Shown: piece after piece, positions 43,500 through 54,428 of the stretch
Numbering within the stretch: the stretch's first letter is position 1
Layout of the letters: every line of letters begins with the position of its first letter
Assembly: GCF_003352835.1 (NCBI RefSeq)
Contig: NZ_QLVD01000011.1
Span: 1 to 64,000, forward strand
DNA length: 64,000 nucleotides
Source: Ornithinimicrobium murale
GTDB lineage: Bacteria > Actinomycetota > Actinomycetes > Actinomycetales > Dermatophilaceae
Direction: 5' to 3'
Program-made: the position numbers and the translations under genes
The notes under the pieces: model-generated
What the model saw: only the letters and a program-made list of their open reading frames with translations
Told to the model about the DNA's origin: nothing
The model's database searches: none

Positions 43500-44300
43500 T
43501 TAGCTCAGGGTGCTGACCGCACAGATGGCACCGGCCGCGCTGCGGGACTCGGCGCCCTGCTCCAGGCCGTCCTGGCCGGGCACGATGCTCAGCGTCTGCG
43601 GCCCGACCATTGGCGAGATCAGGCGATAGCCGTAGGTCTGCCCCACCAGGTCGATCCCTTCGCGCCGCATGTGGTCGCCCATTAGCAGCGCCTGCAGGGG
43701 ACCGTGGATGACGAGCCCGTCGTAGCCCTCGGTCGGCACATAACCCAGGTCGTAGTGGATCCGGTGGGTGTTGTAGGTCAGCGCCGAGAACCGGAATAGC
43801 ATCCGCTCATCGACAGCCAGGCTCAGCGTCGGTCCGGCCGGCGGGGTGGGTGGCTCAGGAGCGGGGGGCAGGGCGCCGGTGCCGGGGGCGCGGTAGACGA
43901 TGTCCTGCTCCTCACGGATCACCAGCTCACCGCCCTGGCTGATCTCCAGCAGCACGGTGACGAAGGTCAGGGGGCCGGTGCGGCCCTCCTTCTCGACCGT
44001 CTTGGCGATCGAGGTCACCTTGGTCGCGGGCTCGCCGATGACCAGCGGACTGTATGTCGTGACTCGCCCGCCCGCGAACATCCGGCGACGCCCGGGGCCG
44101 GGTGGGGCGGGGAGCCCGCTGGTCGGGTGCCCGTCGGGCCCCAGGTCGGACTGGAGTCGGCGATCCAGGAGGTACATCCAGTGCCACAGCGGCGGCACGG
44201 GTGCGCCGGCCGTGAACGGGACCCGCACCTCGAGCATCGCGGCCAGGGACTCCACCGGTTCGGCAGCGATCACCTCGGTGCGGGTGGTGGTCTCGGTCAT
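43500..44300 (-). CDS. MaoC/HTD2-like hydratase (mesaconyl-C4-CoA hydratase type)
   Basis: Predicted 266 residues. The N-terminal half is the FAS1-type dehydratase region (PLWHWMYLLDRRLQSDLGPDGHP, RRMFAGGRVTTYSPL, KEGRTGPLTFVTV, EEQDIVYR). The C-terminal hotdog half has FSALTYNTHRIHYD and GYDGLVIHGPLQALLM, with the catalytic Asp/His seen in this group. It matches hydratases acting on mesaconyl-C4-CoA or itaconyl-CoA to give citramalyl-CoA. Its ATG overlaps the stop of the CitE-like lyase gene, which would cleave that product. Last gene of a five-gene operon. Confidence 0.8.
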   Translation of the reverse strand: MTETTTRTEVIAAEPVESLAAMLEVRVPFTAGAPVPPLWHWMYLLDRRLQSDLGPDGHPTSGLPAPPGPGRRRMFAGGRVTTYSPLVIGEPATKVTSIAKTVEKEGRTGPLTFVTVLLEISQGGELVIREEQDIVYRAPGTGALPPAPEPPTPPAGPTLSLAVDERMLFRFSALTYNTHRIHYDLGYVPTEGYDGLVIHGPLQALLMGDHMRREGIDLVGQTYGYRLISPMVGPQTLSIVPGQDGLEQGAESRSAAGAICAVSTLS

Positions 44301-45190
44301 CAGGTGTCCTCAACTGGTCGGGCGGACCCGGCGGCGGAGCCCGCCCGGCCGATGATTCCTTCGGCGCGCGCCACGACCGGCGCGTCCACCATGTCGCCGT
44401 CCACGCGCACGGCGCCCCCGGCGGCAGCGGCCTCGATCACCCGCTGCGCCCAGGCCACCTCCTCCTCCGAGGGGCGGCCGGCCGCGTGGGTGGGCTCCAC
44501 CTGCTTGGGGTGGATCAGCAGCTTGCCGGTGAGCCCGAGGTCGCGGGCATAGGCCAGGTCGTCGGTCAGGGCCTCGGCGTCGTCGAGGGCGGTCGTCACG
44601 CCATCGATCGGTCCGGGCAGTCCTGCTGCGCGAGAGGCGAGCACGAGGGTGGAGCGGGCCAGGAGCACCGCCTCCCGCCCGTTGCCGCTGCCCAGGTCGA
44701 CCGCATAGTCCAGGTGGCCGAACGCCAGCCGGGAAACACCTGCGGCGGAGGCGATTTCGTGCGCGCGGACGACGCCCAGCGCCGACTCCACCAGGGCGAT
44801 CACCGGCACTCCGGTCAGGTTGGCGACACTGCTGGCCAGGTCCGGGTCGTCGGCCTTGGGCAGCACAACGGCCAACAGTTCGGAATCCGGTGCGATAGTG
44901 AAGGTTCCGGCCAGCGCATGGACATCGGCCTGGTGCTCCGGACTGTCGGCCGCGTTGACCCGCACGGCCGCTCGTCCGCCTTCAGTCAGCCACTGGACGA
45001 CGGCGTCCCGCGCCTGCGCCTTCGCCTCCGGTGCCACCGCGTCCTCCAGGTCGATGATGACGACGTCAGCCCCGCTGGCCACCGCCTTGTCGAAGCGCTC
45101 CGGCCGGTCGCCGGGGACGAACAGGAATGAGCGTGCCTGCTGGACCACAGCGCCAGTGGCGCTGGTCTCGGGGAGGTGAGCGGGCGTCAT
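44300..45190 (-). CDS. CitE-like (HpcH/HpaI) CoA-ester lyase, probably citramalyl-CoA lyase
   Basis: Predicted 296 residues from ATG 45190, which overlaps the acyl-CoA dehydrogenase stop. It has RSFLFVPGDRPERFDKA, VIIDLEDAVAP (Asp/Glu metal site), ALVESALGVVRA (metal Glu 135) and AFGHLDYAVDLG, all hallmarks of the CitE/Ccl/MclA beta-barrel family. It should cleave a beta-hydroxyacyl-CoA into acetyl-CoA and a keto acid, pyruvate if the substrate is citramalyl-CoA. Much longer upstream frames overlap the dehydrogenase and are rejected. Paired with the hydratase downstream. Confidence 0.85.
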   Translation of the reverse strand: MTPAHLPETSATGAVVQQARSFLFVPGDRPERFDKAVASGADVVIIDLEDAVAPEAKAQARDAVVQWLTEGGRAAVRVNAADSPEHQADVHALAGTFTIAPDSELLAVVLPKADDPDLASSVANLTGVPVIALVESALGVVRAHEIASAAGVSRLAFGHLDYAVDLGSGNGREAVLLARSTLVLASRAAGLPGPIDGVTTALDDAEALTDDLAYARDLGLTGKLLIHPKQVEPTHAAGRPSEEEVAWAQRVIEAAAAGGAVRVDGDMVDAPVVARAEGIIGRAGSAAGSARPVEDT

Positions 45191-46368
45191 ACCGGGTCCA
45201 CGTTCCCGCGCTTGACCAGCTGCCGCGCGATGACGTTCTTCTGGATCTCGTTGGTCCCCTCGCCCACGATCATCAGCGGTGCATCGCGGAAGTAGCGCTC
45301 CACGTCGAACTCGGTGGAGTAGCCGTAGCCCCCGTGGATCCGGATGGCGTCCAGGGCGATCTCCATGCCGACCTCGGAGGCGAACAGCTTGGCCATGCCG
45401 GCCTCCATGTCGGCGCGTTGACCGGCGTCGAAGGCCCGGGCGGCGTGGAGCGTGAGCTGCCGCGCGGCGACCAGCTTGGTGGCCATCTGCGCCAGGTAGT
45501 TGCCGATCGACTGGTGCTTCCAGATCGGGACACCGAAGGACTCCCGCTCCTGGGCGTACTGCAGGGAGTCCTCCAGGGCGGCCCGGCCGACGCCGAGCGC
45601 GCGCGAGGCGACCTGCAGGCGGCCGACCTCCAGCCCCTTCATCATCTGGGCGAACCCGAGCCCCTCCTCGGTGCCGAGCAGGGCCGAGCGAGGCACCCGC
45701 ATACCGTCGAATGCGATCTCGCAGCTCTCCACGCCCTTGTAGCCCAGCTTGGGCAGGTCGCGGGACAGGTGGAAGCCCTCCCGGCCGTCCTCGCCCTCCT
45801 TCTCCACCAGCAGGATCGAGACCCCCTTGTGGCGCGGCTCGGCCTCGGGGTCGGTCTTGACCATCAGTGCGATCAGCTCGGCCTTGCGGGCGTTGGTGAT
45901 CCAAGTCTTGGAGCCGTTGACCACGTAGTCGTCACCGTCGACCCTGGCGGTGGTGCGCATCGCCTGCAGGTCCGAGCCGCCGCCGGGCTCGGTGAGGGCC
46001 ATCGTGGCGCGCAGCTCGCCGGTCGCCATCCGGGGCAGGTAGGCGTCCTTCTGCTCCTGGGTGCCGTAGGCCAGGATCAGCTTGGCGACCACGGTGTGCC
46101 CACCCATCGCGCCGGCCAGGCTCATCCAGCCGCGCGCGAGCTCCTCGGTCACCAGGCAGTAGGCCGGCAGGCTCACCTGCGCCTCGCCCCACGGCTCGGG
46201 GATGGCCAGCCCGAAGATGCCCATCTCCTTCATCGCGTCGATGAGCTCGGCGGGGTAGGTGTTGGCGTGCTCCAGCTCGCTGGCGACCGGCTTCACCTGC
46301 TCGGTGACGAACTCCCGCACCAGGCGGACGATCTCGACCTCTTCCTCGGACAACATCTCGGTGCTCAT
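45187..46368 (-). CDS. Acyl-CoA dehydrogenase
   Basis: Predicted 393 residues. It has the FAD-dependent ACAD pattern MALTEPGGGSDL (about residue 123), then KTWITNA, and the C-terminal IHGGYGYSTEFDVERYFRDA with the catalytic Glu in VGEGTNEIQ. In this operon it is a candidate for oxidation of a branched dicarboxylic acyl-CoA such as methylsuccinyl-CoA to mesaconyl-C1-CoA. That choice is inferred from the CoA-transferase, hydratase and lyase beside it. Its ATG lies 16 bases from an inverted copy of the 23-bp repeat. Confidence 0.9.
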   Translation of the reverse strand: MSTEMLSEEEVEIVRLVREFVTEQVKPVASELEHANTYPAELIDAMKEMGIFGLAIPEPWGEAQVSLPAYCLVTEELARGWMSLAGAMGGHTVVAKLILAYGTQEQKDAYLPRMATGELRATMALTEPGGGSDLQAMRTTARVDGDDYVVNGSKTWITNARKAELIALMVKTDPEAEPRHKGVSILLVEKEGEDGREGFHLSRDLPKLGYKGVESCEIAFDGMRVPRSALLGTEEGLGFAQMMKGLEVGRLQVASRALGVGRAALEDSLQYAQERESFGVPIWKHQSIGNYLAQMATKLVAARQLTLHAARAFDAGQRADMEAGMAKLFASEVGMEIALDAIRIHGGYGYSTEFDVERYFRDAPLMIVGEGTNEIQKNVIARQLVKRGNVDPV

Positions 46369-46384
46369 CGGTTCTCCTGTCAGA

Positions 46385-46432
46385 CCATTTTTGGGGAAGT
46401 TCGGACCGCGTCCTCCACCTTCTTGGGGAGGT
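46385..46432 (-). repeat. Third copy of the 23-bp repeat plus a degenerate copy
   Basis: Positions 46385-46407 are the reverse complement of the 38233-38255 unit with one change. A second, weaker unit (TTCTTGGGGAGGTTTGG) follows. It sits in the 95-bp gap between the MmgE/PrpD and acyl-CoA dehydrogenase genes, just upstream of the latter's start. Confidence 0.8.
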
Positions 46433-46463
46433 TTGGCACACTGTCGTGCCTGCGGCGTGAGGG

Positions 46464-47774
46464 TCAGGCGCCGGGCGCCAGGTGCGTGGACAGCAGCCGG
46501 GCGCCGGTCGCCCAGGTGATGTCGGACGGGGAGACCCCCGTGATGCCGCCGAGCTGCAGGCAGTCCTCCACCTTGGCGGTCATCTCCTGCTCCGTGGGCG
46601 GTTTGCCAGGGGAGCCGGGCGGTAGGTCGAGCGACCCGGTGACGGTGCGGCCGTCGGTGAGGTCCACCTCGACGTCCACCGCGCCGACGAGGAGGCCGTC
46701 GCCGGTCTCGTCGGTCAGCGTGATCTCGGTGAGCCCGACCAGGCGCTGGGCCTCGGCGCGCTGAACAGCGTTGTCGCCGAAAGCCTGGAAGCCGGAGTGG
46801 GGGTCGAGCAGGGCGGTGGCCGCGGCATACTCCAGGCTGAACTTGCCCTCCAGCCCCGTCTGCGGACGGCTGTGGACCAGCGGGGTGACCGTGCCACGTG
46901 GCGTGGTCAGCCGGATCGCGGTGACGTCCTCAGCGGCGACGGGACCGCCGGCTGTTTCGCGCAGCGCGCCGATCGGGCGCTGCAGTGCATAGCAGGCGGG
47001 GTAGACCTTGATGGCCAGCCCGTCGGGGATCATCGCCGGGTCCGAGCCGGGGTCGGACACCAGCGGGTGATCGGGGTTGCCGCCGAGCAGCCCCATCCAC
47101 GACTCGACGGCACGGGGGTCCGCGCTGGCGCCGGCCGCCGCGAGCTGGGCGGCCTGGATGCCGGCCTGGGCGGCCATCCCGACCTGCAGGCTCTTGCCGT
47201 CGGTGCCGAAGGCGCGCTGGACGCCGCCCGAGGCTGGGACGGCGAGCGCGATCGCAGTGGTCAGCTGCTCCTCGGTCAGCCCGTGCGCGACGCCGGCGAC
47301 CACCGCTGCCGAGACCGCGCCGGCGGTCGTCGTGGCATGCCATCCCTGGGTGTAGTGCTCCCAGCCCAGGGCGGTGCCGAGCCGGGCCATCACGCCCGCA
47401 CCGGCCAGGTAGGCCTGCGCCGCCCGGGCGCCGTCGTGCCCGGCGGTGGCCAGGGCGACGGGCACGCACACGGTGGAGATGTGGGTCGTGGAAGGCAGGT
47501 GCAGGTCGTCGAAGTCGATGACGTGCGCCAGCGCCGCCCAGCGTGCGGCCTGGGTCTCCAGGGCGTCGGCGACCGGGCGGATCTCGTGCGTGGCGGCGGC
47601 CAGGGCGACCGCGACGGTGTCGAGCAGGCTGCGGTCGGCCAGCGCGAGGTCGCCCGGGGACGGCTCGGTGGTGGCCGCCCAGTGGGCGAGCGCGCCGGCG
47701 ACGGTCCGGGTGTCGGACGCCCCGGCGGTGGCCGTCGGCCCCTCTTCGGTGCCGATGGTGTCAACGGTGCTCAC
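46464..47774 (-). CDS. MmgE/PrpD-family protein
   Basis: Predicted 436 residues from GTG 47774, overlapping the CaiB-like stop (GTGA). Family features include DRSLLDTVAVALAA near the N-terminus, HVIDFDDLHLPSTTHIS, GWHATTTAGAVSAAV, YPACYALQRPIGAL and KFSLEYAAATALLD. The family holds 2-methylcitrate dehydratase, cis-aconitate decarboxylase and iminodisuccinate epimerase. Which reaction applies here cannot be read from motifs. Its operon mates suggest it prepares or isomerises the dicarboxylate before CoA activation. Confidence 0.88.
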   Translation of the reverse strand: MSTVDTIGTEEGPTATAGASDTRTVAGALAHWAATTEPSPGDLALADRSLLDTVAVALAAATHEIRPVADALETQAARWAALAHVIDFDDLHLPSTTHISTVCVPVALATAGHDGARAAQAYLAGAGVMARLGTALGWEHYTQGWHATTTAGAVSAAVVAGVAHGLTEEQLTTAIALAVPASGGVQRAFGTDGKSLQVGMAAQAGIQAAQLAAAGASADPRAVESWMGLLGGNPDHPLVSDPGSDPAMIPDGLAIKVYPACYALQRPIGALRETAGGPVAAEDVTAIRLTTPRGTVTPLVHSRPQTGLEGKFSLEYAAATALLDPHSGFQAFGDNAVQRAEAQRLVGLTEITLTDETGDGLLVGAVDVEVDLTDGRTVTGSLDLPPGSPGKPPTEQEMTAKVEDCLQLGGITGVSPSDITWATGARLLSTHLAPGA

Positions 47775-48931
47775 GGGGTGCCTCCTGTGGCGGGTGCGAG
47801 GCCGAGTTCGGCCAGGATCTGGTCGGTGTGCTCGCCGACCTCGGGGATCGGGCCCATCACCGGGGTGGAGCCCTGGAGCGTGGCCGGGGGGATCAGGGCG
47901 CGGAGCCGGCCCACTGGCGACTCGTAGTCGACCCACCGGTCCCGGGCCTCCAGTTGGGGGTGGGCGGCCAGGCCGGCCAGGTCGCGCAGCAGCGCGTTGG
48001 CGATGCCGACCTCCTCGAGGCGGGCCGCTGCCTGCTCGGCGGTCAGGCTCGCGAAGGCCTGCTCGATCTCGTCGGTCAGCTCGGCGCTGTTCTCCACCCG
48101 GAGGCTGTTGCGCTCAAAACGGGGATCGGTGGCCAGGGCGAGGTTGCCGAGCACCCGATCGCAGAAGGTGGCCCACTCGCGCTCGTTCTGGATGCCGAGG
48201 AAGACCTGCTGCCCGTCGCCGCAGTGGAACGGGCCGTAGGGCGCGATGGCAGCATGCTTGGCGCCGCTGCGCCGGGGGTCGCTGCCGCCATACAGCGAGT
48301 AGTTGAGCGGGAAGCCCATCCACTCCGCCAGCGCCTCGAGCATCGACACCTCCAGGGTGGCTCCCTCGCCGGAGCGCTCGCGCTGGAACAGGGCGGTGAG
48401 GACGCCGGTGTAGGCGTACATCCCGGCGGCGATGTCTGCCACGGAGATGCCGACCTTGGACGGCTCGTCCTCGGTGCCGGTGATCGAGACCAGGCCGGCC
48501 TCGCACTGCACGAGCAGGTCGTAGGCCTTCTTGGTGGTGTAGGGCCCGCCGGGTCCGTAGCCCGAGATCGAGACGTGCACCAGGCGCGGGTTGGCCGCGC
48601 GCAGGGCCTCGGCGCCCAGACCCAGTCGCTCGGCGGCACCGGGGGCCAGGTTCTGGACGAAGACGTCGGCCTCACGTGCCAGGGCGGTGATCGCCTCCTG
48701 CCCCTGGGGGCTCTTCAGGTCCAGCGCGACCGACTCCTTGGAGCGGTTGAGCCACACGAAGTGACTCGACATGCCCTTGACGGTCTCGTCGTATCCGCGG
48801 GCAAAGTCTCCGGGTCCGGGTCGCTCGACCTTGATGACGCGCGCGCCCAGGTCGGCGAGCTGGCGGGTCGCGAACGGCGCGGCGACGGCCTGCTCGAGCG
48901 AGACGACGGTGATCCCGTCGAGTGGGTTCAT
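47771..48931 (-). CDS. CaiB/BaiF-family (class III) CoA-transferase
   Basis: Predicted 386 residues, ATG with GGAGG upstream. It shows the class III pattern VVSLEQAVAAPFATRQLADLGARVIKVERP near the start, then NRSKESVALDLK, and the catalytic Asp 166 in VGISVADIAAGMYA, and HPQLEARDRW near the end. Relatives include succinyl-CoA:itaconate, mesaconyl-CoA C1:C4 and frc-type transferases. It is the first gene of the five-gene catabolic operon and would form or isomerise the CoA ester. A shared putative operator lies just upstream (48969-48989). Confidence 0.9.
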   Translation of the reverse strand: MNPLDGITVVSLEQAVAAPFATRQLADLGARVIKVERPGPGDFARGYDETVKGMSSHFVWLNRSKESVALDLKSPQGQEAITALAREADVFVQNLAPGAAERLGLGAEALRAANPRLVHVSISGYGPGGPYTTKKAYDLLVQCEAGLVSITGTEDEPSKVGISVADIAAGMYAYTGVLTALFQRERSGEGATLEVSMLEALAEWMGFPLNYSLYGGSDPRRSGAKHAAIAPYGPFHCGDGQQVFLGIQNEREWATFCDRVLGNLALATDPRFERNSLRVENSAELTDEIEQAFASLTAEQAAARLEEVGIANALLRDLAGLAAHPQLEARDRWVDYESPVGRLRALIPPATLQGSTPVMGPIPEVGEHTDQILAELGLAPATGGTP

Positions 48932-48968: not shown

Positions 48969-48989
48969 AAGGGCCGTACATTTTGTCAA
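48969..48989 (-). promoter_or_regulatory. Shared motif in front of the catabolic operon (putative GntR operator)
   Basis: On the minus strand the site reads TTGACAAAATGTACGGCCC followed by TT. The same 21 bases with two changes occur at 53118-53138 in front of the gntR-TRAP operon. TTGACA could double as a -35 element here, with AATAAT 19 bases further as a rough -10. The position, 38 bases before the CaiB-like ATG, suits repression by the neighbouring GntR protein. Confidence 0.6.
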
Positions 48990-49037
48990 CGAGACGTGCG
49001 CCACGTTGCGGAAACTCGGCTGGGCGCGCCACACCGT

Positions 49038-49150
49038 GCGCTCGGTGGGCCGAATTCTCGCGTGCCCACGCGCTCGGTGGGTGGTTTTCTCGGCACGCCC
49101 GTGCGCTCGGTGGGTGGTTTTCTCGCTGCGCTCGTGCGCTCGGTCGGGTG
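49038..49150. repeat. 33-bp repeat array related to the 32.4-kb array
   Basis: Units begin GCGCTCGGT at 49038, 49070, 49103 and 49136 (spacings 32, 33 and 33). Two contain GCGCTCGGTGGGTGG and then TTTTCTCG. On the opposite strand the 32429-32611 array reads GCGCTCGGTCGGGGTTTTG, so core, T-box and period agree. The array lies between the TRAP terminator and the catabolic operon promoter. Nothing else is seen in 48990-49171. Confidence 0.85.
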
Positions 49151-49171: not shown

Positions 49172-49221
49172 GGGGTATGCCGTGGTGCCGGGTCGGGGAG
49201 GCCGGCACCACGGCATACCCC
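49172..49221 (-). terminator. Twenty-base-pair perfect hairpin downstream of dctM
   Basis: Arm 49172-49191 (GGGGTATGCCGTGGTGCCGG) pairs without mismatch with 49202-49221 around a ten-base loop. It starts five bases beyond the dctM stop, so it most likely ends the TRAP operon transcript. There is no T-tract, as is common in actinobacteria. Confidence 0.85.
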
Positions 49222-49225
49222 TGGG

Positions 49226-50506
49226 TCATCTGATGAGCGCCAACGACAGGATCGGCAGGTAGGTGACCAGGATCAGTGCCGTGATCAGCACGCTGGCGCT
49301 GGGGAGCGCCGCCTTGGCCACCTGCAGCACACTCATGCCGGACAGGCCCGAGGCCACGAACAGGTTCAGGCCCAGGGGCGGTGTGATCATGCCGATCTCC
49401 AGGTTCATCACGATGATGATGCCCAGGTGGATCGGGTCCACACCCATCTCCATGGCGATCGGCAGCAGGATCGGCGCCAGGATCAGGATGGCGCTGCTGG
49501 TCTCCATGAAGCAGCCGACGATCAGCAGCAGGATGTTGACCATGAGCAGGAACTGCCACGGCTGCAGGTCCATGCTGGCGATGCCCGTCGTGACCTGGTC
49601 GGGGATCCGCTCCGCCGCGAGGACGAAGGTGAACAGGATCCCGTTGGCGATGATGAACATGATCATCGCTGAAGTCTTGGCCGAGGTCAGCAGCACCTTG
49701 CCCAGGTCCGCGATCTTCAGCTCCCGATAGACCACCAGTGCCACGATCAGGCTGTAGGCGACCGCGGCGGCCGCCGCCTCGGTCGGGGTGAAGATGCCGC
49801 CGTAGATGCCGCCCAGCACGATCACCGGCAGCAGGAGCGCCAGGATGGCGTCCCGGAAGGCGCGACGGCGGGTGCCCTTCGGCAGCGGTTCACCGCTGTG
49901 CTCACCGAAGTTGCGGCGCCGGGAGACCCACACGGCCATGCCGAGCAGCATCACGCCGGCCACCGCACCCGGGATGATGCCCGCCATGAACAGGTCACCG
50001 ATGCTCTGCTCGGTGGCGATGCCATAGACGATCAGGGGGATCGAGGGCGGGATCAGGATGCCCAGCGAGCCGGAGGTAGCGACCAGACCGGTCGAGAACT
50101 GCTTGGAGTAGCCGTGCCGGATCATCGCCGGGATGATCAGCGTGCCGACCGCGATCACGGTGGCCGGGCTGGAGCCCGAGACCGCCGCGAAGAACATGCA
50201 CGCCATGACGGCGGTCATGGCCATGCCGCCGCGGTACTGCCCGACGAGCGCGTTGCCGAACTCGGTCAGTCGTCGACTGATGCCGCCCCTGGTCATGATG
50301 TTGGCGGCCAGGATGAAGAACGGGATCGCCATCAGCGGGAAGCTGTTGAGCGCGTTGAACAGGCGCTCCACGACCTGCGTGAGCGGGATGGTGGTGAAGT
50401 AGTAGAGGTAGACGAAGGACGTCAGGCCCAGCGCCATCGCGATCGGTGTCGACGTGAACAGCAACGCAAACAGGATCACGAGCAGAGTGATGACCTCGGT
50501 GCTCAT
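49226..50506 (-). CDS. dctM: TRAP transporter large permease DctM
   Basis: Predicted 426 residues with about twelve membrane segments. It has the DctM landmarks FPLMAIPFFILAANIMTRGG (about residue 50), VSGSSPATVIAVGTLIIPAM near residue 110, IPPSIPLIVYG near residue 155 and the late GIMTPPLGLNLFV-like GMITPPLGLNLFVASG. It couples sodium flow to uptake of a carboxylate brought by DctP. Its start overlaps the dctQ stop. The substrate is inferred from the CoA-ester pathway genes downstream. Confidence 0.93.
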   Translation of the reverse strand: MSTEVITLLVILFALLFTSTPIAMALGLTSFVYLYYFTTIPLTQVVERLFNALNSFPLMAIPFFILAANIMTRGGISRRLTEFGNALVGQYRGGMAMTAVMACMFFAAVSGSSPATVIAVGTLIIPAMIRHGYSKQFSTGLVATSGSLGILIPPSIPLIVYGIATEQSIGDLFMAGIIPGAVAGVMLLGMAVWVSRRRNFGEHSGEPLPKGTRRRAFRDAILALLLPVIVLGGIYGGIFTPTEAAAAAVAYSLIVALVVYRELKIADLGKVLLTSAKTSAMIMFIIANGILFTFVLAAERIPDQVTTGIASMDLQPWQFLLMVNILLLIVGCFMETSSAILILAPILLPIAMEMGVDPIHLGIIIVMNLEIGMITPPLGLNLFVASGLSGMSVLQVAKAALPSASVLITALILVTYLPILSLALIR

Positions 50507-51144
50507 CGGCCGTCCCCCTTCGTCTCGTCGGGGCCGCTGTCGTCGCGGCCCGGATCAGGGGGCGAGGCACCGTAGGTGTCGCCCGCGCCGGAGATCTCGG
50601 CGTTGGAGGCCCGGATCTCCTCCAGGGTCAGGCCCGTGGCCTCCGCCTCGGCGGCCAGCAGGTCCTCGCTTGTTGGCACACCGTCTCGCCAGGTGCGCCA
50701 CAGCATCTCCAGCGCCCGGAGCAGCATGAGTGTCATGCCCAGGGGCACGGCGAGCTCGACGACCCACAGGGGTAGCTTGAGCACCGGGGTGACCGTCGTG
50801 CTCGAGAACGGCTCGAACAGGAGCATCCAGCCCAGGTAGCCCATGATCAGCAGGTAGATGATCGTCACGACGCCCGCCACCAGGGCCAGCCACTTCTTGC
50901 CCCGCTCCTTGAAGAAGACGCCGAGGATGTCCACGCTCACGTGCTCGTTGTGCCGCAGCGTGATCACCGCGCCGATGAACGTGGAGTAGATGATGAGGTA
51001 GATGACGGCTTCCTCGGTCCAGAACCAGGAGGCGTCGAACTGCCGCAGGATGACGTTCACGATCGAGATCAGCGCAGCCAGGCCCAGGGCTCCGGCGGCG
51101 ACGACGTTCTCGATGTTCGTGAGCGCACGGTCTAGCTGTTTCAC
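50503..51144 (-). CDS. dctQ: TRAP transporter small permease DctQ
   Basis: Predicted 213 residues with four membrane segments (about residues 15-35, 50-70, 90-110, 130-150). RQFDASWFWTEEAVIYLIIYSTFIGAVI and the NEHVSVDIL motif are typical of DctQ. The C-terminal 60 residues are an acidic cytoplasmic tail (TEVATGLTLEEI-like, then DDSGPDETKGDGR), longer than in most DctQ proteins. It forms the membrane unit with DctM. A strong hairpin separates it from dctP. Confidence 0.88.
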   Translation of the reverse strand: MKQLDRALTNIENVVAAGALGLAALISIVNVILRQFDASWFWTEEAVIYLIIYSTFIGAVITLRHNEHVSVDILGVFFKERGKKWLALVAGVVTIIYLLIMGYLGWMLLFEPFSSTTVTPVLKLPLWVVELAVPLGMTLMLLRALEMLWRTWRDGVPTSEDLLAAEAEATGLTLEEIRASNAEISGAGDTYGASPPDPGRDDSGPDETKGDGR

Positions 51145-51208: not shown

Positions 51209-52252
51209 TCACTCCTGGTCGGCCAGGAGCTCGTCGATGATCTCGTCGCCGATCACGTCGCGGTACTGCTCGTAGATCGAGGGCACCACGACCTCCTTGA
51301 ACGCCTGGCGCTCCTCCTCGGTCCACACGGTGATCTCGGTGCTGCCGTCGGCCTCGATGGCCGCCTTGGACTCGTCGTTCACGGCAACGGCGTTGTCGCG
51401 GTTGTAGGTCGAGGCGTCCTCAGCGGTCTGCACGAGGATCTCCTGCAGGTCCTCGGGCAGGCTGTCGAAGAACTCGGTGTTGACGACCAGGATGTAGCCG
51501 ATGTAGCCGTGGTTGGACTCGGCGATGTCGCTCTGCACCGTGTGCATCTTCTGCGACTCGATGTTGGAGTAGGTGTTCTCACCGCCGTCGATGACGCCCT
51601 GCTGCAGCGCCGAGTAGACCTCGGCGAAGGCGATCGCCTCGGCGGACCCGCCCCAGGCCTCGATCTGGCTCTTGAGCACGTCGGAGGGCTGGATGCGGTA
51701 CTTCTTGCCCTCCATGTCCGCCGGCTTCTGGGTGAGGTTGTTGGAGTGGATCTGCTTCATTCCGGAGTCCCACAGGCCGAGGACCTTCATGTTCTTGGCG
51801 GCGAGGTCCTCGTTGGCGAAGATCGCCTTGCCGACCTCGGTGTCCGGCGCCGAGACGCTGGGGATGTCCTCGGGGCCGTCGAACAGGAACGGCAGGTCGA
51901 GCACCTGCAGGGCCGGAGCCACCGTGGTGAACTTCGCAGAGGCCGGCGCCAGCATCTGGACCGAGTTCTGCTGGACGGCCTGCATCTCGTCCTTGTCGCC
52001 ATAGAGCGAGGAGTTCGAGTAGACCTCGACGTCGATGCGGCCGTCGGTCCGCTTCTCCAGCTCCTCCTCGAACCAGATGGCGGCCTTGCCCTTGGGGGTG
52101 GAGTCGGTCGTGACGTGGGAGAACTTCAGGGTGAAGGTCTCACCGTCGCCGCCCTCCTCGCCGCCGCCGTCGCGGGCGCCGCCGCAGGCCGTCAGGGCCA
52201 GCGCACTGATCGCGATGACACCGGTGAGAGTGCGTAGGGAGCGCCTAGTCAT
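51209..52252 (-). CDS. dctP: TRAP transporter substrate-binding lipoprotein DctP
   Basis: Predicted 347 residues from ATG 52252, which overlaps the gntR stop (ATGA). The N-terminus is a lipoprotein signal with LTAC (Cys 23). DctP features include LKFSHVTTDSTPKGKAA, GLWDSGMKQIHSN, and KYRIQPSDVLKSQIEAWGGSAEAI with the Arg that binds the substrate carboxylate, then VIDGGEN. It captures a carboxylate outside the membrane. Cotranscribed with gntR upstream. Confidence 0.93.
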   Translation of the reverse strand: MTRRSLRTLTGVIAISALALTACGGARDGGGEEGGDGETFTLKFSHVTTDSTPKGKAAIWFEEELEKRTDGRIDVEVYSNSSLYGDKDEMQAVQQNSVQMLAPASAKFTTVAPALQVLDLPFLFDGPEDIPSVSAPDTEVGKAIFANEDLAAKNMKVLGLWDSGMKQIHSNNLTQKPADMEGKKYRIQPSDVLKSQIEAWGGSAEAIAFAEVYSALQQGVIDGGENTYSNIESQKMHTVQSDIAESNHGYIGYILVVNTEFFDSLPEDLQEILVQTAEDASTYNRDNAVAVNDESKAAIEADGSTEITVWTEEERQAFKEVVVPSIYEQYRDVIGDEIIDELLADQE

Positions 52253-53049
52253 GAGGATGTTCCTTTCGTGGAGGCCCGCTCCGCCATCGTTGGCGAAGGG
52301 GTGTTGCGCCGGCGTCCGAGGTGGAGCCGGTGGGTGTAGTGCTCGGGCAGGAAGTCGGAGACGGCCCACTCGACCGCTGCCCCGCTGGCATCGACATAGA
52401 GTCGCTCGACGTGCAGCAGCGGGTGGCCGATCGCGCAGCCGAGGCGCTCGTGGTCGACGTCGGTGGCGGCACGGGCGGTCATCAGCTGCTCGGCGCCGTT
52501 GAGCTGCACGCCGCGAGCCGTGAGGGCGCCGATGACCGTGGTCGTGGTGGTCGCGCCACCTTCGCCGAAGGTGGGCTCGCCCTCCAGGAGCTGTCCGACC
52601 GACGGGGGGAGGTAGACCGAGGTGTGGCAGAACACCGTGCCGCGGTGCCGCCGCACGAACCGCATGACATACATCAGCCGGGAGGACAGACCCAGGTGGT
52701 GAGCCGCTTCCGGCTCGAAGCCACCCTCCAACGGGTGGACCACCTCGAGCTCGGTGTCGTCGGACAGTCCGATCAGGTCATCGACCGTCTCGAAGGAGCG
52801 TTTGTAGCGCAGGTGCGAGGGGGTGATGAAGGTGCCGCTGCCCGGGACGCGATAGACCAGGCCCTCGTTGACCAGGTCCAGGTAGGCACGGCGAACCGTC
52901 TGCCGGCTGACGCCGAACTCCTCGCCGAGCTGGCTGTCCGTCGGGAGTGGCTCACCCTCGGCCCAGCGCTGCTCGCTGATCGCGTCGCGGAGGTGACCGG
53001 CGAGCCGGCGATAGCCCGGCTCCTCCGTCCGGCGCGACGTGCGCGACAT
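52249..53049 (-). CDS. GntR-family (HutC-type) transcriptional regulator
   Basis: Predicted 266 residues. The N-terminal winged helix is LPTDSQLGEEFGVSRQTVRRAYLDLVNEGLVYRVPGSGTFI (about residues 35-75). The rest is a UTRA effector domain (FVRRHRGTVFCHTSVYLPP, HPLLHVERLYVDASG, WAVSDFLPEHY). It is the first gene of the TRAP operon and so probably senses the transported acid or its CoA ester. It most likely binds the 21-bp motif found before itself and before the CaiB-like gene. Confidence 0.9.
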   Translation of the reverse strand: MSRTSRRTEEPGYRRLAGHLRDAISEQRWAEGEPLPTDSQLGEEFGVSRQTVRRAYLDLVNEGLVYRVPGSGTFITPSHLRYKRSFETVDDLIGLSDDTELEVVHPLEGGFEPEAAHHLGLSSRLMYVMRFVRRHRGTVFCHTSVYLPPSVGQLLEGEPTFGEGGATTTTTVIGALTARGVQLNGAEQLMTARAATDVDHERLGCAIGHPLLHVERLYVDASGAAVEWAVSDFLPEHYTHRLHLGRRRNTPSPTMAERASTKGTSS

Positions 53050-53117: not shown

Positions 53118-53138
53118 AAGGGCAGTACATTTCGTCAA
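53118..53138 (-). promoter_or_regulatory. Shared motif between gntR and the MFS gene (putative GntR operator)
   Basis: The minus strand reads TTGACGAAATGTACTGCCC followed by TT, matching the site at 48969-48989 in 19 of 21 bases. It lies 69 bases before the gntR start and 36 before the divergent MFS start, where TAGATA (about 53147) could be the -10 for the MFS gene. One bound dimer could control both directions. Confidence 0.6.
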
Positions 53139-53174: not shown

Positions 53175-54428
53175 GTGGTTCGCAACCACGGCCGCTCTGC
53201 GACCGCGTCCGTGATGCTGGGGGCCAGCGCGCTGACCACCCTGGGCGCCCTCCCGCCCTTCCTGGTCGGCGCGCAGGCGGTGCTGATGCAACGGGACCTG
53301 GGGTTCGGCCCAAGCGTGCTGGGCGTGGTGGTGAGCACCTTCTTCGGCGTCGCGGCCCTCGCCACGATCTTCGGCAGCGGCCTGCTTGATCGGTGGAGTC
53401 GTCGTCGGGCGCAGGTGATCGCCGGAGGACTGGTGAGCATCGGTGGTTTCGGTCTGGCTCTCGGCGTGCACCACTGGGGGATCCTCATCGCCGCGATGGC
53501 GGTGCTCGGGCTGGCCAACGCGGCGTGTCAGGGCACCTCGAACCAGACCGTCGCCACCGCGCTGCCGCCACACCGCCGCGGGCTCGGCTTCGGCATCAAG
53601 CAGAGCGCTGTGCCCGCCGCCATCATGTTCGGCGGGCTCGCGGTGCCGACCATGACTGCCCTGTTCGGGTGGCGCAGCACCTTCCTGGTCACCGGGGCCT
53701 GCGGGTTCGTGGTGATCGCGCTGGCACTCCGGCACCGGGACGACGGGCCGAAGGGGATCCGGGTCAGCGCCGTTCCTAGCCTGGGGGACCGTGCCCCGCG
53801 GGTCCCGCTCCTGCTGTGCGGTTGCGCGATCACCTTCGCCAGCGCGGCCGCCAACTTTCTCGGCGCCTACCTGGCCAGCTGGGCCCACCAGGTCGGCCTC
53901 AGCGTGGGGCAGGCCGGGCTGCTCATGGCAGCCGGTTCGGGCAGCTCGATCCTGATCCGCGTCTTCGCTGGGCACCGCGCCGACCGGCGCTTCGGTGGCA
54001 ACCTGGGCATCGTCGCGGCCCAGATGGCCGCCGGTGCGCTCTGTCTGCTGATGATCGGCTTTCTCGATGTGACCTGGGCCGTGGTGGTCTTCGGGTTCCT
54101 GTCGTTTGGAGTCGGCTGGTCCTGGCCGGGTCTGTTTCTGTATGCCGCGGCGCGCGTTGGGCGCGACGCCCCGGCTCAGGCGTCGTCCGTGGTGCAGGCG
54201 GGAGCCTTCGCCGGTGGTGCCATCGGTCCGGTGAGTTTTGGCCTGCTGATCTCGGCCGTCAGCTTCCAGGGTGCCTGGTTCGTGGCGGCGGGGTCGTTCA
54301 TCGTGGCCAGTTCACTGGTGCTCCTGGCGCGCAACGGATTTCGCCGGGACCTGGTCCGGCGTCCCCCGGCCAGCCCGTTCGGTTATGGCGGCGGACGGGA
54401 CCATCCCCGACGGGTCTCTGGAGGCTGA
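53175..54428 (+). CDS. Major facilitator superfamily transporter
   Basis: Predicted 417 residues from GTG 53175, with AAGGAG seven bases upstream. Twelve membrane segments are predicted. The MFS loop 2-3 motif appears as GSGLLDRWSRRRAQVI (about residue 67) and the loop 8-9 counterpart as GHRADRRFGGN (about residue 272). It has GFGIKQSAVPAAIMFGGLAVP, like the aromatic/organic-acid MFS group. It diverges from the GntR gene and may move the same acid or a pathway product. The substrate is unknown. Confidence 0.87.
   Translation: MVRNHGRSATASVMLGASALTTLGALPPFLVGAQAVLMQRDLGFGPSVLGVVVSTFFGVAALATIFGSGLLDRWSRRRAQVIAGGLVSIGGFGLALGVHHWGILIAAMAVLGLANAACQGTSNQTVATALPPHRRGLGFGIKQSAVPAAIMFGGLAVPTMTALFGWRSTFLVTGACGFVVIALALRHRDDGPKGIRVSAVPSLGDRAPRVPLLLCGCAITFASAAANFLGAYLASWAHQVGLSVGQAGLLMAAGSGSSILIRVFAGHRADRRFGGNLGIVAAQMAAGALCLLMIGFLDVTWAVVVFGFLSFGVGWSWPGLFLYAAARVGRDAPAQASSVVQAGAFAGGAIGPVSFGLLISAVSFQGAWFVAAGSFIVASSLVLLARNGFRRDLVRRPPASPFGYGGGRDHPRRVSGG

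What the first reader, a model, noticed from the sequence alone, without database searches (positions are those of the whole stretch)
43500..48931. Probable new operon for CoA-dependent breakdown of a branched C5 dicarboxylate
Class III CoA-transferase, acyl-CoA dehydrogenase, mesaconyl-C4-CoA-hydratase-like protein and citramalyl-CoA-lyase-like protein can be ordered as methylsuccinate (or mesaconate/itaconate) to its CoA ester, mesaconyl-CoA, citramalyl-CoA, then acetyl-CoA plus pyruvate. An MmgE/PrpD protein, whose family includes cis-aconitate decarboxylase, is in the same operon, and a TRAP importer sits beside it. I know no standard pathway with this exact gene set.
Basis: inference. Interest (0 to 1): 0.7.

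Follow-up and report, generated by a model that had tools for sequence, protein, structure and literature searches.

The report
Actinobacterial methylsuccinate/itaconate breakdown operon
The genes look like an actinobacterial version of a pathway already proven in Pseudomonas and Cupriavidus that breaks itaconate and methylsuccinate down to acetyl-CoA and pyruvate, but two of its five enzymes belong to different subfamilies from the known ones, so nature may have assembled the methylsuccinate branch twice.

Summary
In detail: five tightly packed minus-strand genes (43500-48931) encode a class III CoA-transferase, an MmgE/PrpD protein, an acyl-CoA dehydrogenase (ACAD), a citramalyl-CoA-lyase-like and an itaconyl-CoA-hydratase-like protein; a TRAP importer and GntR regulator lie upstream. 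The proposed pathway order is sound, but the claim that no standard pathway has this gene set is wrong: the pseudomonad itaconate/methylsuccinate cluster (ict, ich, ccl, mcd, methylsuccinate isomerase, TRAP) was characterised in 2023-2025. MmgE is best read as an (S)/(R)-methylsuccinate isomerase, not a cis-aconitate decarboxylase. What is new: transferase, lyase and hydratase are relatives of Ict, Ccl and Ich, but ACAD and MmgE belong to other subfamilies than Mcd and the known isomerase (AU tests p about 1e-5 and 0.01). Of 26 actinobacterial loci with a transferase or lyase gene, 25 have this ACAD type and 12 this MmgE type; none has the pseudomonad types. So the methylsuccinate-specific half looks recruited independently. 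A 21-bp element whose core has two sites in the assembly lies before both transcription units, tying importer to enzymes. Function is inferred; nothing was assayed.

The parts
43500..44300 (-). itaconyl-CoA hydratase / mesaconyl-C4-CoA hydratase-like protein (Ich-like), 266 aa
   Evidence: PF13452; the only solved relatives at E<=0.001 are 8huc and 8khg 'Itaconyl-CoA hydratase', E 4e-44 and 5e-44; 42-45% to five pseudomonad-type cluster hydratases
44300..45190 (-). (S)-citramalyl-CoA lyase-like protein (Ccl-like), 296 aa
   Evidence: 9nzb/8khl 195 bits versus 131 bits for the next group 1z6k/6aq4; the one match at E<=1e-5 in the P. fluorescens genome is the cluster lyase, 48%; 99* clade with proteobacterial cluster lyases; E49, R77, E135, D161 motifs kept (their catalytic role is recalled)
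45187..46368 (-). acyl-CoA dehydrogenase, FadE3-like; proposed methylsuccinyl-C4-CoA dehydrogenase, 393 aa
   Evidence: Best solved relative 4iv6 FadE3, 643 bits; Glu370 in GEGT, the usual catalytic Glu (recalled); not in the pseudomonad Mcd clade (AU p=1.4e-5)
46464..47774 (-). MmgE/PrpD-family protein; proposed (S)-(R)-methylsuccinate isomerase, 436 aa
   Evidence: PF03972, PF19305; H84 D87 H98 Y141 H146 K194 K256 at the places of the catalytic set of iminodisuccinate epimerase; separate clade from the pseudomonad isomerase
47771..48931 (-). class III CoA-transferase (Ict-like), 386 aa
   Evidence: PF02515; 57% to the cluster CoA-transferase of P. fluorescens, 463 bits against 221 for the next of that genome's seven matches; one 99* clade with proteobacterial cluster transferases; Asp166 in VADIAAG (catalytic role recalled)
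48969..48989 (-). 21-bp element TTGACAAAATGTACGGCCCTT before the enzyme unit
   Evidence: one of two sites in the window, 0.00 expected; core: two sites in the assembly; kept in genus loci
49172..49221 (-). 20-bp perfect hairpin just after dctM, terminator-like, without a T run
   Evidence: -45.7 kcal/mol, z -7.9; like hairpin read by eye in the five genus loci printed
49226..50506 (-). DctM, large TRAP permease
   Evidence: PF06808, TIGR00786 above cut-off; 51% to the DctM of two Pseudomonas clusters
50503..51144 (-). DctQ, small TRAP permease
   Evidence: PF04290
51209..52252 (-). DctP/IctP-like solute-binding protein
   Evidence: PF03480, TIGR00787; dicarboxylate-binding residues kept, Ile at IctP position 234
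52249..53049 (-). GntR/UTRA regulator
   Evidence: PF00392, PF07702
53118..53138 (-). second copy of the 21-bp element, before the GntR-TRAP unit
53175..54428 (+). divergent MFS transporter, possibly part of the locus
   Evidence: PF07690; adjacent in 5 of 5 complete genus loci

Best explanation
This is the actinobacterial form of the itaconate/methylsuccinate degradation operon. The TRAP importer brings in itaconate or methylsuccinate. The class III CoA-transferase moves CoA from succinyl-CoA to the C4 carboxyl of itaconate or (R)-methylsuccinate. The MmgE protein turns (S)- into (R)-methylsuccinate through an enolate with His98 and Tyr141 as the two bases. The FadE3-like ACAD oxidises methylsuccinyl-C4-CoA to mesaconyl-C4-CoA. 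The hydratase forms (S)-citramalyl-CoA from mesaconyl-C4-CoA or itaconyl-CoA, and the lyase cleaves that to acetyl-CoA and pyruvate. A GntR regulator probably acts on a 21-bp element in front of both units. Shown here: gene content, conserved order, relationship of the three core enzymes to the pseudomonad ones, separate ancestry of ACAD and MmgE, kept catalytic residues, the shared element. Inferred: every reaction, substrate, stereochemistry and the regulator's binding.
For: Core enzymes: CoA-transferase 57-61% to five pseudomonad-type cluster transferases and far above the next best in the same genome, in one 99* clade with them; lyase clade 99*; hydratase's only two solved relatives include 'Itaconyl-CoA hydratase' 8khg. 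The same five functions, plus TRAP, sit together in the experimentally studied P. aeruginosa cluster. In Pseudomonas loci L087, L102, L103 the order hydratase-ACAD-MmgE-transferase-lyase-DctPQM was seen directly. MmgE has the catalytic positions of iminodisuccinate epimerase including the Tyr missing in the cis-aconitate decarboxylase row. The FadE3-like ACAD accompanies the core in 25 of 26 actinobacterial loci that hold a transferase or lyase gene (six of the 26 are from the window's genus), and in Mycobacterium aquaticum (ACAD-transferase-hydratase-lyase). All 12 loci with the actinobacterial MmgE also have that ACAD. DctP keeps the dicarboxylate pocket, with Ile or Val at position 234 as in 17 of 17 locus DctPs. 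The core of the 21-bp element has two sites in the 3.29 Mb assembly, both here.
Against: ACAD (31-34%) and MmgE (27-30%) are distant from the pseudomonad-type cluster proteins, so their reactions cannot be transferred by orthology. MmgE scores 86 bits with a model of the proteobacterial locus proteins that gives two of those 802 and 812. In the trees the one cis-aconitate decarboxylase row lies in the same wider group as the actinobacterial MmgE (support 90 and 80), nearer than the pseudomonad isomerases do. 14 of 26 actinobacterial loci lack this MmgE, and of 396 genomes sampled from the phylum only the window's own has it (12 others match at 33-38% only). One actinobacterial locus, Solirubrobacter L057, with hydratase but no transferase or lyase found, has an ACAD of the pseudomonad type. 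A second FadE3-like ACAD of Nocardia vinacea (L200) has no core transferase or hydratase beside it. Ile at position 234 also occurs in 4o94. The consensus promoter scan found nothing. NCBIfam RipC_Ccl is matched well below cut-off (154 of 375 bits), though the P. fluorescens lyase fails it too (159).
Confidence: 0.71

Rival explanations
1. The operon serves a different 2-substituted C4/C5/C6 dicarboxylate. Transferase, hydratase and lyase do Ict/Ich/Ccl-like chemistry, but the distinct ACAD and MmgE reflect a different entry substrate, for instance a larger 2-alkylsuccinate or a 3-substituted acid.
For: Only ACAD and MmgE differ in subfamily from the assayed pathway. MmgE groups nearer iminodisuccinate epimerase and the B. 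subtilis 'IRG1' homologue, which PMC12290011 says has an undetermined function. The same paper notes that the isomerase pocket could hold larger C3-modified substrates.
Against: The CoA-transferase, first step, is 57-61% to Ict-type enzymes and the DctP residues are those of a C4/C5 dicarboxylate pocket.
Confidence: 0.15
2. Itaconate/citramalate breakdown only: the three core enzymes are the pathway, ACAD and MmgE do something else that happens to be coexpressed.
For: Three-gene itaconate clusters exist and itaconate needs only Ict, Ich and Ccl (PMC12290011).
Against: ACAD of this clade accompanies the core in 25 of 26 actinobacterial loci holding a core gene, and the actinobacterial MmgE occurs with it in 12 of 12; overlaps of -4 and -1 nt.
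Confidence: 0.08
3. MmgE is a cis-aconitate decarboxylase that makes itaconate inside the cell.
For: Same superfamily; cis-aconitate decarboxylases are among the solved relatives; the one decarboxylase row falls in the same wider tree group and the folds match about as well (TM 0.74-0.79).
Against: Weak sequence match (48 bits against 164 for 7bra and 126 for iminodisuccinate epimerase); epimerase-type Tyr141 present, absent in the decarboxylase row; the pseudomonad cluster proteins have no detected activity on cis-aconitate; an importer is present.
Confidence: 0.05
4. Ethylmalonyl-CoA-type C1-CoA route: the ACAD makes mesaconyl-C1-CoA and the products are propionyl-CoA plus glyoxylate.
For: (2S)-methylsuccinyl-CoA dehydrogenase of that route is also an ACAD (8ciw is a hit).
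Against: 8ciw ranks far below FadE3 (219 versus 643 bits); the lyase is nearer 9nzb/8khl than malyl/methylmalyl-CoA lyase 5ugr (195 versus 95 bits).
Confidence: 0.01

Closest known systems
Pseudomonad five-gene itaconate/methylsuccinate cluster: ich-mcd-msi-ict-ccl (PA0878-PA0883; C. necator E6A55_22580-22600)
   Same: Same five functions; transferase and lyase lie in the same clades, hydratase is 42-45% identical; TRAP importer linked in P. aeruginosa
   Different: ACAD and MmgE come from other subfamilies; no PA0880-type 2-hydroxyparaconate lactonase gene inside the operon; gene order differs; GntR regulator, where a LysR lies beside Comamonadaceae cluster L030
IctPQM TRAP importer of P. aeruginosa (PA0884-PA0886)
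   Same: DctP pocket residues K41, K94, R169, Q171, F192, N209, N213, Y236 kept; linked to the pathway
   Different: Val35 to Thr, Ser91 to Ala, Val234 to Ile; DctM 51% identical to two Pseudomonas cluster DctMs
Three-gene Yersinia-type itaconate operon (RipC lyase model)
   Same: Final lyase step and products
   Different: No methylsuccinate genes there; PMC12290011 calls the two types convergent; window lyase matches the RipC model at 154 of 375 bits
Iminodisuccinate epimerase (PDB 2hp0) and B. subtilis 'IRG1' (PDB 7bra)
   Same: MmgE/PrpD fold; the catalytic positions; HY..GWH motif
   Different: 26-29% identity in the structural match; substrate of the window protein untested
FadE3 (PDB 4iv6; M. 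smegmatis, recalled)
   Same: ACAD subfamily by score, 643 bits
   Different: Seven papers in the library hold the word FadE3 and none holds it with itaconate (listing only), so its reaction is open as far as I looked

Membership tests
Pseudomonad-type itaconate/methylsuccinate degradation cluster | Ich and Ccl homologues next to each other (the pathway-specific pair in PMC12290011) | tested here: met
Pseudomonad-type itaconate/methylsuccinate degradation cluster | Class III succinyl-CoA:itaconate CoA-transferase homologue | tested here: met
   57-61%, one clade 99*; that Ict is class III: PMC5592240
Pseudomonad-type itaconate/methylsuccinate degradation cluster | Mcd orthologue ((RS)-methylsuccinyl-C4-CoA dehydrogenase) | tested here: not met
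   Different ACAD clade; AU p=1.4e-5 against one clade (p=4e-5 without the window's own row)
Pseudomonad-type itaconate/methylsuccinate degradation cluster | Methylsuccinate isomerase orthologue | tested here: not met
   Separate clades; AU p=0.0116 and 0.0096
(S)-(R)-methylsuccinate isomerase, by function | Catalytic His, Tyr and two Lys of the two-base enolate mechanism | tested here: met
   H98, Y141, K194, K256; mechanism from PMC12290011
(S)-(R)-methylsuccinate isomerase, by function | Interconverts methylsuccinate enantiomers | not testable with these tools
   Needs an enzyme assay
cis-Aconitate decarboxylase | Active-site pattern of the decarboxylase at the epimerase Tyr position | tested here: not met
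   Tyr141 in the window, no Tyr in the decarboxylase row; 48 bits only
cis-Aconitate decarboxylase | Placement with decarboxylases in a tree | tested here: inconclusive
   One decarboxylase row, on a long branch, in the same wider group as the actinobacterial clade but outside it
IctPQM-type TRAP importer | DctP-type dicarboxylate clamp (Arg169, Lys41, Lys94, Asn209, Asn213, Tyr236) | tested here: met
IctPQM-type TRAP importer | Residue 234 smaller than Leu (Val in PA0884) | tested here: inconclusive
   Ile in the window; also Ile in four Pseudomonas cluster DctPs and in 4o94
Yersinia-type RipC/Ccl (NCBIfam NF038242) | Score at or above the curated cut-off 375 | tested here: not met
   154.2 bits

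The most novel reading that the evidence does not exclude
The methylsuccinate-specific half of the pathway arose at least twice: Actinobacteria recruited a FadE3-type ACAD and an iminodisuccinate-epimerase-like MmgE, where Proteobacteria recruited another ACAD subfamily and another MmgE subfamily, onto a shared Ict/Ich/Ccl core. This would give a second, unrecognised family of methylsuccinate isomerases and a function for the FadE3-like dehydrogenases that sit beside itaconate-core genes in Nocardia, Streptomyces and Mycobacterium.
Probability: 0.55. Interest if true: 0.55.

Novelty: new variant of a known kind. Interest (0 to 1): 0.45.

Why it matters
Methylsuccinate breakdown is documented almost only in Pseudomonadota (96.2% of the isomerases in the published survey, PMC12290011). 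If this reading holds, some Actinobacteria do it with different enzymes that a survey built on the pseudomonad isomerase would probably miss, so the capacity is under-counted. It also gives a concrete, testable activity for FadE3-like dehydrogenases and for one branch of the poorly characterised MmgE/PrpD family.

Tried and rejected
Cis-aconitate decarboxylase for MmgE, an ethylmalonyl-CoA-type C1 route, and Yersinia-type RipC were considered and set aside (see rivals and membership test). A large deletion in the MmgE N-terminus, suggested by the Pfam match starting at profile position 77, is not the case: the distance to the DFDD motif is about the same as in 7bra. The second MmgE/ACAD/CoA-transferase locus of the same genome (contig 14, L201) was opened because one ACAD falls in the pseudomonad Mcd clade, but its other genes (Fe-ADH, Ldh_2, Asp/Glu racemase, HpcH, ADP-forming CoA ligase, HMGL-like) point to another pathway and the hydratase model found nothing there. 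The IctP position-234 idea did not discriminate. Consensus promoter and terminator scans gave nothing useful for the two units. Foldseek ranks 7e9d, 2hp0, 2hp3 and 7bra first (TM to the query 0.78-0.80) but cis-aconitate decarboxylases reach 0.74-0.79, so the fold does not decide function.

My script label 'Bsub_MmgE' for 7bra is inaccurate: 7bra is titled B. subtilis IRG1, and 5mux is the B. subtilis MmgE.

Rows dropped before counts: one search found 54 MmgE stretches; 6 duplicates and 1 short one were dropped and 3 PDB fragments added, giving the 50 rows; 8 very distant rows were dropped for (42 rows; 54 with 12 added). The ACAD tests used 61 and 62 of the 111 rows, chosen by hand; the window's own ACAD is as the identical row L131 and was missing. 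The 26/25 split covers 51 of 90 loci (39 had no transferase over 500 bits or lyase over 290 bits), and its type models were built from the same loci, so the trees, not those scores, carry the claim. The tests of one clade were set up on quick trees with long branches.

Full report
What is there. The five minus-strand genes at 43500-48931 are real and closely packed: class III CoA-transferase (PF02515), MmgE/PrpD protein (PF03972/PF19305), acyl-CoA dehydrogenase (PF00441 and partners), HpcH/HpaI lyase (PF03328) and a FAS1-dehydratase-type hydratase (PF13452). Upstream are DctM, DctQ, DctP and a GntR/UTRA regulator, and divergently an MFS transporter. The assembly is a 3.29 Mb, 33-contig, 75% complete genome; the 14 best named matches of the hydratase are all actinobacterial (L031-L044).

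Conservation. A close hydratase (86-100%) is found in 7 of 31 genomes of the genus searched, own genome included. In 5 of the 6 others the full order GntR-DctP-DctQ-DctM-transferase-MmgE-ACAD-lyase-hydratase and the divergent MFS gene are the same; in the sixth the contig starts inside the ACAD. In named genomes the same five enzymes occur in a row in Streptomyces sp. UBA8490, Actinophytocola, Nocardioides AX2bis, a Nocardioidaceae MAG and Enemella evansiae and, in another order, in Modestobacter. The MmgE type is rare: of 396 genomes sampled from the phylum, 13 match at E<=1e-40, and outside the own genome only at 33-38% identity.

The known pathway. PMC12290011 (abstract, introduction, results, discussion and HMM methods read) shows with purified proteins that the cluster's CoA-transferase activates itaconate and (R)-methylsuccinate, the ACAD is an (RS)-methylsuccinyl-C4-CoA dehydrogenase giving mesaconyl-C4-CoA, and the MmgE/PrpD protein is an (S)-(R)-methylsuccinate isomerase without detected activity on cis-aconitate; hydratase and lyase finish to acetyl-CoA and pyruvate. 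PMC9875883 (passages) shows the same by gene deletions of the P. aeruginosa cluster in P. putida. PMC12599236 (abstract and one results section) shows that the linked TRAP importer IctPQM is needed for growth on itaconate. PMC5592240 (passages) lists the P. aeruginosa itaconate CoA-transferase among class III enzymes. So the gene set and its logic are not new.

Relationship of the core. The window CoA-transferase matches the cluster transferase of P. fluorescens at 57% and 463 bits; the next best of that genome's seven matches has 221 bits. In a 69-row tree the actinobacterial-locus and proteobacterial-locus transferases lie in one 99* clade of 46 rows, which leaves out 21 of 25 other CoA-transferases. 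The lyase has one match at E<=1e-5 in P. fluorescens, the cluster lyase, 48%, and a 99* clade of 45 rows with the proteobacterial cluster lyases, which leaves out 5 of 7 others. The only solved relatives of the hydratase at E<=0.001 are 8khg, named itaconyl-CoA hydratase, and 8huc. I built no hydratase tree. Motifs of transferase and lyase are kept; which residues are catalytic there is recalled.

The difference. ACAD is 31-34% and MmgE 27-30% identical to five pseudomonad-type cluster proteins, against 42-61% for the core. In a 111-row ACAD tree the ACADs beside the actinobacterial core fall in one 100* clade, and the proteobacterial ones in another 100* clade; the window ACAD's nearest solved relative is FadE3 (4iv6, 643 bits). 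A 62-row test with the window's row rejects one clade for both (lnL 251 lower, p-AU 1.4e-5; support for the 16 actinobacterial rows 100*, for the 14 proteobacterial rows alone 83). At the place of the GEGT Glu (Glu370 in the window) two proteobacterial cluster rows have no Glu. For MmgE the 12 actinobacterial and 21 proteobacterial rows form separate clades (100* each); one clade is rejected at p=0.0116 with 42 rows and p=0.0096 with 54 rows. Branches are long, so the exact neighbours of the actinobacterial MmgE are unsure: the trees put it in a group with iminodisuccinate epimerase, 7bra, a cis-aconitate decarboxylase, another MmgE of the same genome and a Halomonas protein, with 80-90 support.

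Counts. Of 90 loci, 51 have a transferase or lyase of the core type. I count 26 actinobacterial: 25 have the FadE3-like ACAD, none the pseudomonad type; 12 have the actinobacterial MmgE, none the pseudomonad type, and all 12 also have the ACAD. Six of the 26 are from the window's genus. Of 25 proteobacterial: 19 have the pseudomonad ACAD and 18 the pseudomonad MmgE, none the actinobacterial types. The actinobacterial locus without ACAD is the R. koreensis plasmid, with transferase, hydratase, lyase and a further MmgE type. Against the pattern, among the 39 loci without transferase or lyase, Solirubrobacter L057 has hydratase plus a pseudomonad-type ACAD, and the window's genome has such an ACAD in another locus (L134). 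A second FadE3-like ACAD of Nocardia vinacea (L200) has no core transferase or hydratase in the 10 kb fetched.

Why MmgE is read as an isomerase. PMC12290011 names H85, D88, H99, H150, K198, K266 of iminodisuccinate epimerase and Tyr145 as the second base, and says they are conserved in the pseudomonad isomerase, where its docking text has Glu91 at the Asp place. The window protein has H84, D87, H98, Y141, H146, K194, K256 at these places. The cis-aconitate decarboxylase row has no Tyr there. A predicted structure (13 sequences, mean pLDDT 83.6) matches 7e9d, 2hp0, 2hp3 and 7bra best, which fits but does not decide. An isomerase is needed if the transferase is (R)-specific as in Pseudomonas; that is untested here.

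Importer and regulation. DctP keeps Lys41, Lys94, Arg169, Gln171, Phe192, Asn209, Asn213 and Tyr236 of IctP; position 234 is Ile in 16 and Val in 1 of 17 locus DctPs, Leu in P. aeruginosa DctP, but Ile in 4o94 as well. The 21-bp element TTGACRAAATGTACNGCCCTT occurs twice in the window, upstream of the transferase gene and of the regulator gene, with none expected; its core has two sites in the assembly with up to 2 mismatches and none for the reversed control. Both copies are present with 0-1 mismatches in four genus loci and 3-4 in a fifth. Related cores (1-2 mismatches) lie near the first enzyme or regulator gene in L031, L032, L035 and L038; L033 and L036 have only 4-mismatch sites and L034 none (no chance estimate was made for these). 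A 20-bp perfect hairpin after dctM (z -7.9) separates the two units. The likely picture is two units under one GntR regulator; binding is inferred.

Novelty. Searches for itaconate degradation, methylsuccinate isomerase, and itaconate with FadE3, Actinobacteria, Nocardioides/Streptomyces or R. equi listed no paper that describes this actinobacterial form; the library holds open-licence PMC papers only and I saw most of them as listings. FadE3 alone is in seven papers, seen as a listing. PMC12290011 does not hold the words Actino-, Mycobacter-, Nocardi- or Streptomyces in its main text and reports 96.2% of isomerases in Pseudomonadota. A model built from the proteobacterial locus proteins gives the window MmgE 86 bits and P. 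fluorescens 812, so I infer, without having the published model, that their survey would not have counted this type. I file the finding as a new variant of a known kind.

Noticed in passing
window 48969-48989 and 53118-53138: A 21-bp element before each of the two transcription units, its core found twice in the 3.29 Mb assembly; candidate GntR operator overlapping a -35-like TTGAC.
   Followed up: yes
window 49032-49147: Four copies of a 15-bp unit CGTGCGCTCGGTGGG at 32-33 nt spacing in the dctM/CoA-transferase gap; similar units seen by eye in L019.
   Followed up: partly
window 18143, 38204, 38236, 46388, 46420: Dispersed repeat TTTTTGGGGAGGTTCGG, 5 sites with up to 3 mismatches, 0.01 expected; two of them in the 95-nt gap between MmgE and ACAD.
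   Followed up: no
L103:10680-11981, L055:10776-12005 (pseudomonad-type Mcd): At the alignment place of the GEGT Glu these proteins read APIS, so their catalytic base may lie elsewhere.
   Followed up: no
L201 (same genome, contig 14): A second locus with two MmgE proteins, a CoA-transferase, an ACAD of the pseudomonad Mcd clade, Ldh_2, Fe-ADH, HpcH and ADP-forming CoA ligase; pathway unknown.
   Followed up: partly
L017 (Rhodococcus koreensis plasmid NZ_CP070610.1): Transferase 78%, hydratase 66% and lyase 58% to the window, with another MmgE type just before the hydratase and no core-type ACAD; the frame before MmgE looks like a P450 by eye.
   Followed up: partly
search listing: Rhodococcus (Prescottella) equi plasmids list a hydratase homologue, 57-65%, annotated mesaconyl-C4 CoA hydratase or hypothetical protein or not at all; no paper with R. 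equi and itaconate was found.
   Followed up: no
L199 (Mycobacterium aquaticum): FadE3-like ACAD, CoA-transferase, hydratase and lyase in a row without MmgE, hinting at a function for FadE3-type enzymes.
   Followed up: partly
L074, L077, L081 (two Polynucleobacter and an uncultured betaproteobacterium): Hydratase, pseudomonad-type MmgE and lyase with no ACAD found in the locus, unlike the always-adjacent pair described in PMC12290011.
   Followed up: no
L069 (Halomonas smyrnensis): CoA-transferase, hydratase, a further MmgE type and lyase in a row, no ACAD found.
   Followed up: no
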